From assembly GCA_041071465.1 (NCBI GenBank), contig CP163498.1, forward strand, positions 5,350,001 through 5,414,000: a stretch of 64,000 bases of DNA, read 5' to 3'. Under the pieces are notes generated by a model that was not told the DNA's origin, did no database searches, and worked only from the letters and a program-made list of their open reading frames with translations. Both the position numbers and the translations under genes were made by a program. Positions 6,604 to 9,202 of the stretch are shown piece by piece. The stretch's first letter is position 1; each line of letters opens with the position of its first letter. Origin of the DNA: Pseudomonas putida. Lineage in GTDB: Bacteria > Pseudomonadota > Gammaproteobacteria > Pseudomonadales > Pseudomonadaceae.

Positions 6604-7718
6604 TTATCGCTTCCCGTACAACAGTGCATCCAGTTCATCCACCTGCGGTGCGCGGTCGAACAGTTCCTGTGCCAGCTTCTGGATATGCTGCGACCAGGCG
6701 ACCTTCTCCACCCACTCCGGTGGCATGCCTGACACACCGTACAGCGCGCCAGCCAGCTGGCCGGCTGTGGCCGCGACGCTGTCAGCATCATCGGCAAGGT
6801 TGGCGGCCAGAAGAATCGCGTCATGGAAGTTGTTGCTGTTCCATACAGCCCACAGGGCTGCCTCCAGCGTGTCGACCACATAACCAGAAGAGCGGATCTG
6901 ATCGCGGCTCTTCTGTTTGTACTCGCCAGCATTGATGATCATCGGGCGCGGACGCAGCGAGCGCACCGCAGGTGCAAGGGTTTCTTCCTTGTCTGCACCG
7001 TTCAGTGCCAGATGCAGTTGTGCGGCGAGCAACTGGCAACAGTTCACCGCTTCATCGGCGTTATGGGTCACGCTGCTCTGCGTGACGCTTTCCCACCAAC
7101 TCGCAGACAGTGAATGTCGACGAAAGATGGCCGTGGGCGCGAGGCGTATGATCGAGCCATTACCTGCAGTGGACGGGTCGTAGTTGCCTTGCCAACCGAT
7201 GCCTTCGCGCAACCAGCCTTCAAGCGCGTTACGTGTAGCGTTGCCGATGTCGAAACAACGGCCATTGACACTGTTTTCCCGTGTCGATACCAGCGCACCA
7301 AGGCATTTGCGTAGGTGGCGTAGTCGAACTTGCCCTGGCTTACATACGTATCCGCCAAGCAAAGCGCCATGCTAGTGTCATCGGTCCACTCGCCGGCAGC
7401 AAGCCTGAATGGCCCGCCACCGACCATGTCGTTCACATGCTCCCGGTCGCGCGGCAGGAACTCGAGCGTGGTGCCTACCGCATCGCCAATGGCCAGGCCC
7501 AGCAACGCGCCTTTGGCGCGGTCCAGTGCCTGTTCTGGCGTCAAGGTACAGGCCCTGGACTGCAACCAGCGCGGCTTGCTCGCCGGCTCTGCTGGGGCGT
7601 CTGCCCGCACGTTGTAGTCCATCCTCTGCTGCAGCTGCCGGGAGGGCTCCGGCGACAGGTGCGCGTAGCGCTCGACGTAGTCGGACAGCAATGCGTTTGG
7701 GCTTCTTAGATCGATCAT
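6604..7718 (-). CDS. ADP-ribosylglycohydrolase (ARH/DraG) immunity protein, broken by an apparent 1-base deletion
   Basis: Frame 1 from ATG 7718 has a roughly 60-residue N-terminal extension, then ALLGLAIGDAVGTTLEF (GDxxG, 78-82) and EWTDDTSMAL (TDDT, 112-115), both metal-site motifs of ADP-ribosylglycohydrolases. At WYRHG the frame breaks in the CCC run at 7278-7280. Restoring one base continues it as ENSVNGRCFDIGNATRNAL to the stop at 6604, through the C-terminal DDADSVAATAGQLAGALYG motif. Full length would be about 371 residues. It overlaps the toxin stop by 4 bases (ATGA), so the two are translationally coupled. Tri1, the immunity protein of the Tre1 ADP-ribosyltransferase, belongs to this enzyme class and acts both by blocking the toxin with an N-terminal extension and by removing ADP-ribose. 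The same dual role is inferred here. Confidence 0.8.
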
Positions 7719-9202
7719 GGGATTTCTTTGAGAATAAATTGAGTGACGGAGCCATTGTCGACCCTGTCGACAACATTGAAGCGCGTGCCTGGCCCAAACA
7801 ATACCTCAGCTTCCCTGTGGCCAGACAGAAAGCTGATATCTTTGCCAGTCACGCCCTGCAAGGTCATCTTCACATTACCGTTGAATGCCAGGGCACGGTC
7901 TGCAGAAGTACTCAGGAACGCTGCATCACTGGTTGGCAGACCGACTTGCATCCTCGACATGACATCCTCCGGCAACGTAGTACCGCGGAAGGTATCCCCC
8001 AACGTGTAGGACGGTAGCTTTGCGAGGCCTTCGTTGGCATGCGTGACGAAGGCCTCCATCTGCGGGCTAAGCGGGGTCTGCCCGCGCAGCGCCGGGTTGA
8101 TCCACTGATAGCCTTCGTTGGTGGTGTAGCCATGCAGCGCGCCGATCTGATCGTCCGTGAGCAAGGCTGAACGCTTAGGGTCGGTGAAGTCGGCGATGCG
8201 CCTGCCCGTGGATATCCAGCGGTCTGCAGTCTGACTACCCACGGCTTCTCGCAAAGACATGACTGCCGGTTTTGCTACAGGCTTCGGTGCCGAGGCTTTT
8301 TCCGGTTGACGAGCGGGCTGCAGCGGCTCAGGTTTCTTGACGGGGGTGGGGCCCTTGATCTGCAGGTCTGGGTGAGCCAGCAGCTTGGCTTCGTTCTTGG
8401 CAAGCCAGGCACCAAACTGCTTGTTGGCAATGTCGGCCTGCAGCTTGGCACTGCGCGTGGCAATGTTCTCCATGCTGCCCATGATGCCGGCCTTCATCTG
8501 TCCACGCAGCAGGTAGGTGACGATGGCCATCAGTAACAACAACACCAGCTGTTCCTGCCCGCGGGCCAGCTGCCGCGCGGCGCGTTCGGTTCGCTCCTGG
8601 ATAACGGCCACCGACCCTCCAGTAGGGTCCAGCCCGGCAGGCTTGACGCCTTCTTCGGCATTCCAGGCCGTAGCGATACCCTCCTGAAGAGTGGCCAGGC
8701 AAACCGGCAGCCCTTTGATGAAGTATTCGGCGATCGCCGACAGGCCCAACGCAAGAAGGATCAGGTTACCGACCTCCAGACCGATGCCCGCCCCTGCCAC
8801 GGCGCCGGGCGCCGCGCCGACGCCAAAGGCCAAAGCACCGATCGCACCGCCTGCAGCAGAGCCCACGGCAATACTCCCACCGAGGATCATCGACACTTCC
8901 TTCACCAGTTGCAGCAGCACCGGCAAAATCTGTTCGATACCGATCGAAGCCCATTTGCGCTTGAGGTCTTCCTGGAAGATCGGATACGACATCGCCAGTG
9001 CCTGTTGCACATTGTCGATGCGATGGCCACCCAGGTAGCCATAGGCTTGGCCGGCGCCATCACTAACGCGCCGAGAGAAACCGTGCCAGCTGTCATTGGC
9101 GCTCTGCAGCCCCTGGTGGATGCTCTGGTTCACCGCGCTGAATTTCTGATCGAGGCTGCGCTCGATGTCACTCCAGCTAGGGACGTTAGCTAAAAGGTCC
9201 AT
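7715..9202 (-). CDS. Polymorphic T6SS toxin with C-terminal ADP-ribosyltransferase domain
   Basis: 495 residues. Residues 1-160 form a helical N-terminal domain with a Gly/Ala-rich hydrophobic pair (about 105-160), similar to a domain I recall as DUF6861 in Pseudomonas polymorphic toxins. Another hydrophobic segment is at about 218-232, and a proline/lysine linker at 280-315. The C-terminal domain (about 340-495) has the R-S-E triad of arginine-type ADP-ribosyltransferases: FRGTT (R406), FLSTS (S431-S433) and REAEVLFGPGTRF with an E464-x-E466 pair. There is no PAAR, VgrG or signal peptide, so it must ride as cargo or through an adaptor. The next gene is an ADP-ribosylglycohydrolase overlapping by 4 bases. 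The enzymatic call is strong; the protein target is unknown. Confidence 0.85.
   Translation of the reverse strand: MDLLANVPSWSDIERSLDQKFSAVNQSIHQGLQSANDSWHGFSRRVSDGAGQAYGYLGGHRIDNVQQALAMSYPIFQEDLKRKWASIGIEQILPVLLQLVKEVSMILGGSIAVGSAAGGAIGALAFGVGAAPGAVAGAGIGLEVGNLILLALGLSAIAEYFIKGLPVCLATLQEGIATAWNAEEGVKPAGLDPTGGSVAVIQERTERAARQLARGQEQLVLLLLMAIVTYLLRGQMKAGIMGSMENIATRSAKLQADIANKQFGAWLAKNEAKLLAHPDLQIKGPTPVKKPEPLQPARQPEKASAPKPVAKPAVMSLREAVGSQTADRWISTGRRIADFTDPKRSALLTDDQIGALHGYTTNEGYQWINPALRGQTPLSPQMEAFVTHANEGLAKLPSYTLGDTFRGTTLPEDVMSRMQVGLPTSDAAFLSTSADRALAFNGNVKMTLQGVTGKDISFLSGHREAEVLFGPGTRFNVVDRVDNGSVTQFILKEIP

What the first reader, a model, noticed from the sequence alone, without database searches (positions are those of the whole stretch)
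6604..9202. ADP-ribosyltransferase toxin paired with an ADP-ribosylglycohydrolase antidote next to a T6SS
The toxin tip has R406, STS (431-433) and E464-x-E466, the R-S-E triad. The next gene, coupled by ATGA, has GDxxG, TDDT and DDxD motifs of an ARH enzyme plus a 60-residue N-terminal extension. Tre1/Tri1 of Serratia uses the same enzyme logic, but here the toxin carries a different helical N-terminal domain and no PAAR or VgrG. How it is loaded and what it modifies are open. This is the best candidate for an undescribed system in the window.
Basis: partly seen in the sequence, partly recalled or inferred. Interest (0 to 1): 0.82.

Follow-up and report, generated by a model that had tools for sequence, protein, structure and literature searches.

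The report
Tre1-like toxin on swappable T6SS chassis
A Pseudomonas genome carries what is probably an injected toxin aimed at rival bacteria: its killing tip and antidote are close relatives of the known Tre1/Tri1 pair, but they sit behind a little-described front domain that related bacteria fit with many other tips, and in this genome copy the antidote gene is split, probably by an assembly error.

Summary
Confirmed: 7715-9202(-) encodes a 495-aa protein with an ADP-ribosyltransferase (ART) tip (R406, S431-T-S433, E464-x-E466), about 50% identical to the solved Tre1 tip. The overlapping next gene is a Tri1-family antidote.

Corrected: the antidote is split between two frames here; a same-species genome has one 371-codon frame. 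Of 11 one-base length differences from that genome, 10 are missing in the window, so an assembly error is likelier than real loss. The genome's only VgrG, PAAR and DUF1795 matches lie just downstream.

The new part is the front end, residues 1-~290 with Pfam DUF6861. In 40 fetched loci it carries nine tip families; identity collapses near residue 290. VgrG is in the flank of 28 of 40. Among 298 Pseudomonas genomes DUF6861 occurs in 26 of 34 with this T6SS subtype and 5 of 264 others. Glycine-zipper repeats are conserved. A second DUF6861 clade lies away from T6SS genes. Loading, membrane crossing and target are inferred; the AlphaFold model was low-confidence. New variant of a known kind.

The parts
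7715..9202 (-). 495-aa effector: DUF6861 chassis plus ART tip
   Evidence: open frame; PF21724 at residues 65-271, 190.4 bits; Tre1 tip match
8333..9202 (-). constant front part, residues 1-290, shared with effectors bearing other tips
   Evidence: identity to 31 other-tip effectors 0.52-0.89 per 20-residue block to residue 280, 0.31 at 281-300, 0.06-0.18 after
8390..9010 (-). DUF6861 match, residues 65-271, with hydrophobic glycine-zipper stretch
7718..8239 (-). ART tip, residues 322-495, with R406, S431/S433, E464/E466
7068..7718 (-). Tri1-type antidote, first piece: N-terminal extension, GDAVG and TDDT
   Evidence: NF041672 positions 1-153, 217.9 bits; PF03747 positions 1-85
6604..7362 (-). 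Tri1-type antidote, second piece in another frame: DDAD
   Evidence: NF041672 positions 137-361, 388.8 bits; PF03747 positions 86-287
4570..6567 (-). VgrG, the only one found in this genome
   Evidence: TIGR03361 611 bits; own-genome search
3955..4548 (-). DUF1795/DcrB (Eag-type chaperone), the only one found in this genome
   Evidence: PF08786 69.9 bits; own-genome search
2726..3958 (-). prePAAR-PAAR effector, the only PAAR match in this genome
   Evidence: PF05488 and PF25799; own-genome search
11477..12979 (+). TssC, the only one found in this genome; defines the T6SS subtype used in the co-occurrence test
   Evidence: TIGR03355; identity survey
29111..29530 (+). Hcp match of this T6SS region
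   Evidence: PF05638 139 bits

Best explanation
A T6SS antibacterial effector of polymorphic-toxin design. The constant front part (residues 1 to about 290, holding DUF6861) is the delivery module: it leaves the cell with the T6SS spike, most likely through the single VgrG/PAAR/DUF1795 set encoded just downstream, and its hydrophobic glycine-zipper stretch helps the tip cross the inner membrane of the target. The tip here is a Tre1-type arginine ADP-ribosyltransferase expected to poison the target's cytoplasm (by analogy with Tre1, through FtsZ and division arrest). The overlapping gene is a Tri1-type antidote that plugs the toxin with its N-terminal extension and removes ADP-ribose with its ARH domain. 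Shown here: domain make-up, catalytic residues, family of both proteins, tip swapping, linkage to VgrG and to one T6SS subtype, zipper conservation. Inferred: secretion, loading partner, membrane crossing, target, killing, both antidote actions. The split antidote frame is most likely an assembly error and not biology.
For: Tip homologous to solved Tre1 (E 4.1e-50) with the triad; antidote of the Tri1 family, intact in the same species (621 bits over a 490 cut-off; PDB 6dre_A E 1e-143). Front part constant, tip variable: nine tip families, among them Ntox46 and, in the second clade, Ntox15; Ntox46 is the Tse6 tip (PMC10763514, passage) and Ntox15 the Tde1 tip (PMC10240207, passage). Immunity-type neighbours: Tsi6 domain, Tdi1-type. 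VgrG in the flank in 28 of 40 named loci. DUF6861 in 26 of 34 genomes with this TssC subtype against 5 of 264 without, Fisher P 1.5e-25; genomes with only the second clade 8 of 12. Own genome: one TssC, VgrG, PAAR and DUF1795 each, no DUF4123. Glycine columns G114/118/122 and G129/133/137/141/145 at 80% or more in 34 sequences.
Against: No T6SS gene in the flank in 12 of 40 named loci of this clade, and VgrG near only 1 of 32 loci of the second clade (labels corrected). One DUF6861 genome (G192) has no TssC match, and four more (G031, G051, G086, G145) lack this subtype. Genome relatedness is not corrected for. The number of GxxxG in residues 93-165 exceeds shuffles only modestly (6 against 2.8, P about 0.03). 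AlphaFold mean pLDDT 51. No secretion or toxicity datum exists here. In the window itself the antidote is not one frame.
Confidence: 0.72

Rival explanations
1. The antidote is really broken in this strain: the locus is decaying and the toxin is silent or inactive.
For: The antidote lies in two frames. The second DUF6861 effector of this genome is also split: DUF6861 in one frame, Ntox15 in another.
Against: The effector frame is intact and 99% identical to the same-species copy. One-base differences are biased: 10 of 11 missing in the window, 9 of those 10 inside open frames of the relative and 5 of 10 in runs of three or more equal bases, where 13% of bases lie. Three of the 10 fall in two short segments whose orthology is less sure; without them it is 7 of 8, 6 of 7 in frames, 4 of 7 in runs. 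An Hcp gene elsewhere is split too.
Confidence: 0.17
2. The effector is loaded in the Hcp tube, or acts on eukaryotes, rather than being spike cargo against bacteria.
For: Hcp matches at four places in the genome. Weaker ART matches to XopAI (E 8e-14; E 1e-8 in PDB) and SpvB (E 0.007), which act on plants and animals (recalled).
Against: A dedicated, overlapping antidote is expected when kin are targets; the Tre1 match is far stronger. A 495-aa cargo is large for the Hcp lumen (recalled, no call).
Confidence: 0.1
3. DUF6861 is not a T6SS delivery domain: it serves another export route or none, and its link to one T6SS subtype is shared ancestry.
For: The second clade lies away from T6SS genes (VgrG near 1 of 32, corrected); 12 of 40 loci of the window's clade have none of the six T6SS proteins tested in the flank; G192 has DUF6861 without TssC.
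Against: Subtype association 26 of 34 against 5 of 264, kept in second-clade-only genomes, 8 of 12. Tips shared with proven T6SS effectors of other designs.
Confidence: 0.12

Closest known systems
Tre1/Tri1 of Serratia proteamaculans (PDB 6drh, 6dre)
   Same: ART tip about 50% identical with the same triad; antidote of the same family including the N-terminal extension; adjacent genes
   Different: Serratia Tre1 carries an N-terminal PAAR and transmembrane part (PMC10763514, passage); here DUF6861, no fused PAAR
Predicted ART and Ntox46 T6SS effectors of Pseudomonas sp. JY-Q (PMC5674928, passages)
   Same: ART and Ntox46 effector candidates in the variable region of a T6SS cluster, with DUF1795 and a PAAR toxin with SMI1/KNR4 immunity nearby
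   Different: In silico listing; the passages seen name no front domain, no tip swapping and no Tri1. Identity with this locus was not tested
Tde1/Tdi1 of Agrobacterium (PMC10240207, passages)
   Same: Repeated GxxxG in a hydrophobic N-terminal part before a cytoplasm-acting tip; the second DUF6861 clade even carries the Ntox15 tip and Tdi1-type immunity
   Different: Tde1's zipper region is about 50 residues and binds Tap1; this genome has no DUF4123 match. No sequence relation between the two front parts was tested
T6SS marker domains MIX, RIX, WHIX (PMC10435454, search listing; PMC12135965, passages)
   Same: A constant front domain tied to T6SS with swappable toxin tips
   Different: Pfam names only DUF6861 in the front part; the WHIX WHxxxH motif is absent; MIX and RIX were not tested by profile

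Membership tests
Tre1 (T6SS ART toxin) | ART tip homologous to Tre1 | tested here: met
   E 4.1e-50 to 6drh over residues 322-495
Tre1 (T6SS ART toxin) | R-S-E triad with ExE | tested here: met
   R406, S431/S433, E464/E466
Tre1 (T6SS ART toxin) | N-terminal PAAR in the same protein | tested here: not met
   Pfam finds DUF6861 and no PAAR
Tre1 (T6SS ART toxin) | ADP-ribosylates FtsZ and blocks division | not testable with these tools
   needs an assay; property of Tre1 taken from PMC10763514 passage
Tri1 (ADP-ribosylarginine hydrolase antidote) | NF041672 over its cut-off of 490 bits as one protein | tested here: not met
   window pieces 217.9 and 388.8 bits apart; intact same-species copy 621.4 bits
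Tri1 (ADP-ribosylarginine hydrolase antidote) | ARH motifs GDxxG, TDDT, DDxD | tested here: met
   present, but divided between two frames
Tri1 (ADP-ribosylarginine hydrolase antidote) | N-terminal extension ahead of the ARH fold | tested here: met
   first piece, residues before 70; aligned with 6dre_A from residue 1 in the relative
DUF6861 (PF21724) | match over the curated cut-off | tested here: met
   190.4 bits over 28, full profile length
Tde1-like zipper-translocated, Tap1-loaded effector | repeated GxxxG in a hydrophobic front part | tested here: met
   shuffle test only modest, P about 0.03
Tde1-like zipper-translocated, Tap1-loaded effector | DUF4123 (Tap) adaptor | tested here: not met
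   no match in this genome; 12 of 18 genomes searched have one somewhere
Tde1-like zipper-translocated, Tap1-loaded effector | membrane permeabilisation by the zipper | not testable with these tools
   needs an assay
WHIX effectors | WHxxxH motif | tested here: not met
   read on the sequence; motif as given in PMC12135965 passage
MIX / RIX effectors | profile match of the front part | not tested
   no such profile was run

The most novel reading that the evidence does not exclude
DUF6861 is a new class of T6SS delivery domain, tied to one Pseudomonas T6SS subtype, that combines spike loading without PAAR fusion or a Tap adaptor (perhaps with the DUF1795 chaperone encoded beside VgrG) with its own glycine-zipper gate through the target's inner membrane, and so carries cytoplasm-acting tips that other bacteria mount on PAAR proteins (Tre1 and Tse6 types) or on Tde1.
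Probability: 0.5. Interest if true: 0.68.

Novelty: new variant of a known kind. Interest (0 to 1): 0.52.

Why it matters
How T6SS cargo effectors without a fused PAAR or VgrG are recognised, and how their tips cross the victim's inner membrane, are open questions. DUF6861 offers a tractable case: one constant domain, nine tip families in one survey, one T6SS subtype, and a genome with exactly one VgrG, one PAAR, one DUF1795 and no DUF4123 match, so the loading partner could be found with a few deletions. It also gives an uncharacterised Pfam domain a use as a lure for new toxin tips: in six of the nine tip families the representatives tested had no Pfam toxin match over cut-off.

Tried and rejected
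Structure prediction: the full effector with 34 aligned sequences gave mean pLDDT 51.3 and pTM 0.40. It shows a helical front part at low confidence and is not used as evidence; no fold search was run on it. A second job on residues 1-290 could not be placed. Solved relatives of residues 1-290: best E 0.56, chance level. Plasmid records: one weak DUF6861 hit, Pseudomonas coronafaciens, E 3e-8.

Programmed frameshifting as the cause of the split antidote: considered on the sequence only and dropped, because the same-species copy is an ordinary single frame and one-base differences are scattered over the window. DUF4123/Tap loading: no match in this genome. Association of DUF6861 with any T6SS: uninformative, as 263 of 298 genomes have TssC and 30 of the 31 DUF6861 genomes do; only the subtype test informs. 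That the DUF1795 type lying beside VgrG serves DUF6861: that type is found in 27 of 28 VgrG-bearing named loci and in the window, a second type in 17 of the 28, but service to the PAAR effector explains this as well; left as an inference.

Weak points of my own counts: one search's script put L078 in the wrong clade; printed figures are VgrG in 13 of 22 (first clade) and 1 of 31 (second), corrected by hand to 13 of 21 and 1 of 32. Clade membership for one search was assigned by hand. The gene lists come from a simple ORF picker that sometimes chose an antisense frame over VgrG, so one search shows VgrG in 21 of 40; the 28 of 40 is from tblastn. One search used 34 effectors of 440 aa or more (31 without the ART tip); shorter or broken ones were left out of the identity profile, two of them (L163) were added to the tip clustering.

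Literature: 'DUF6861' in 0 papers of the held library. The searches listed no paper that I recognised as describing this domain under another name; I saw listings, not the papers, except for passages of PMC10240207, PMC12135965, PMC10673891, PMC5674928 and PMC10763514. The original Tre1/Tri1 paper is not held.

Full report
What is in the sequence. On the minus strand a 495-codon frame (7715-9202) is followed, with a 4-base ATGA overlap, by the antidote region, then VgrG (4570-6567), DUF1795 (3955-4548), a prePAAR-PAAR effector (2726-3958) and a SUKH-type gene (2030-2503). TssC lies divergently at 11477-12979 (TIGR03355); the names TssB and TssF that I used for its neighbours in scripts are recalled and come from no family call. 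The effector has DUF6861 at residues 65-271 and an ART tip. The triad residues are R406, S431/S433 and E464/E466. The tip matches the solved Tre1 tip at E 4.1e-50; weaker matches go to XopAI and SpvB.

The antidote is split. Tri1 model positions 1-153 match the frame 7068-7718 and positions 137-361 the frame 6604-7362. A genome of the same species (G289; its contig length and range agree with the public record Pseudomonas hunanensis xwS6) holds one 371-codon frame and the effector at 99% identity. Over six aligned segments, about 62.7 kb, there are 13 length differences, 11 of one base, 10 of those 11 missing in the window. Nine of the 10 lie in open frames of the relative and five in runs of three or more equal bases, where 13% of bases lie. 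Three of the 10 fall in two short segments (0.9-1.0 kb, 87% and 99% identical, order changed) whose orthology is less sure; without them it is 7 of 8 over about 60.8 kb. An Hcp gene and the second DUF6861 effector of this genome are also split. I take the antidote's split as a probable assembly error, not proven.

The front part is a chassis. A search of named genomes with an alignment of four ART effectors gave 40 loci, 39 Pseudomonas and one Erwinia. The peptide patterns used lie in the front part, so the set is biased to it and says nothing on how common other chassis are. All 40 share the front part, at least in part; 4 carry the ART tip. Against 31 effectors with other tips, identity to the window per 20-residue block is 0.52-0.89 up to residue 280, 0.31 at 281-300 and 0.06-0.18 afterwards. 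Tips cluster into nine families of 17, 5 (ART, window included), 4, 3, 3, 2, 1, 1 and 1 members. Pfam names Ntox46 and LHH nuclease among them; six families had no toxin match over cut-off in the representatives tested. A second clade, 31% identical in the front part in the pair compared, carries an Ntox15 tip in the member tested, with GAD-like/Tdi1-type immunity downstream, that immunity family occurring in 61 copies over 30 loci. A P-[STN]-W motif lies in the first 90 residues of 49 of 51 DUF6861 ORFs with a whole N end.

Link to the T6SS. VgrG lies in the held flank in 28 of 40 named loci; the other 12 have none of the six T6SS proteins tested. In 298 genomes of the genus DUF6861 passes its cut-off in 31. 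TssC at 91-100% identity to the window's is in 34, the next match being at 62%. The overlap is 26; the table 26, 5, 8, 259 gives Fisher P 1.5e-25, and genomes with only the second clade show 8 of 12. Exceptions: G031, G051, G086, G145 and G192, the last without any TssC match. The subtype cut was chosen after seeing the gap, and relatedness is not corrected for. Outside the genus DUF6861 is rare: 3 of 321 genomes in a class-wide draw pass the cut-off, the window's own included.

How it may work. This genome has one TssC, one VgrG, one PAAR and one DUF1795 match and no DUF4123, so a spike-loaded cargo would use the genes next door; Hcp matches at four places leave tube loading open. The front part has glycines at 114, 118, 122 and at 129, 133, 137, 141, 145 in at least 80% of 34 sequences, within hydrophobic stretches at about 91-170 and 212-241; the excess of GxxxG over shuffles is modest (6 against 2.8, P about 0.03). 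In Tde1 such a zipper is needed for entry into the target but not for secretion (PMC10240207, passages). I infer spike loading, injection, zipper-aided crossing of the inner membrane, ART attack in the cytoplasm, and protection of kin by Tri1. The structure prediction neither supports nor opposes this.

Antidotes without toxins. Of 13 named loci with a Tri1 homologue, 9 lack the ART tip in the held stretch, as expected if tips are exchanged and old antidotes kept. Lone Tri1 genes are already reported in Enterobacter (PMC10763514, passages).

What is known already. Tip and antidote belong to Tre1 and Tri1. An ART and an Ntox46 effector in the variable region of a T6SS of Pseudomonas sp. JY-Q were predicted in 2017 (PMC5674928, passages); whether it is this very locus was not tested. 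What I did not find in print, within the held library and the searches, is DUF6861 as a T6SS delivery domain. The six families named by a survey of vgrG loci (PMC10673891, passages) do not include it.

Verdict. A real and mostly well-read finding: a Tre1/Tri1-type pair on a different chassis, with an antidote frame that this assembly breaks. The pair alone is ordinary; the chassis, its swappable tips and its tie to one T6SS subtype are what deserve work.

Noticed in passing
window 2726-3958 against L033 675-1895: The neighbouring PAAR effector keeps its front part but has a different C-terminal tip in the same-species genome, while the DUF6861-ART effector next to it is 99% identical: a tip swap within one species.
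   Followed up: no
window, about 62.7 kb aligned to L135-L138: One-base length differences from a same-species genome are mostly bases missing in the window (10 of 11), so other 'broken' genes in this window should be read with care.
   Followed up: partly
G000 C1:170771 region, L092 9507-10871: A second DUF6861 effector of this genome lies far from the T6SS; its DUF6861 and Ntox15 parts are in two frames, while the same-species locus L105 has one 448-aa frame.
   Followed up: partly
L116 / L163 (Pseudomonas sp. UBA1879, MAG): A row of one whole and several truncated DUF6861 effectors with different tips and immunity-type genes between them, looking like successive tip replacement in one place.
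   Followed up: no
L129, L130, L110, L132: Tri1-type antidote genes without an ART toxin stand in T6SS-adjacent arrays of small genes.
   Followed up: partly
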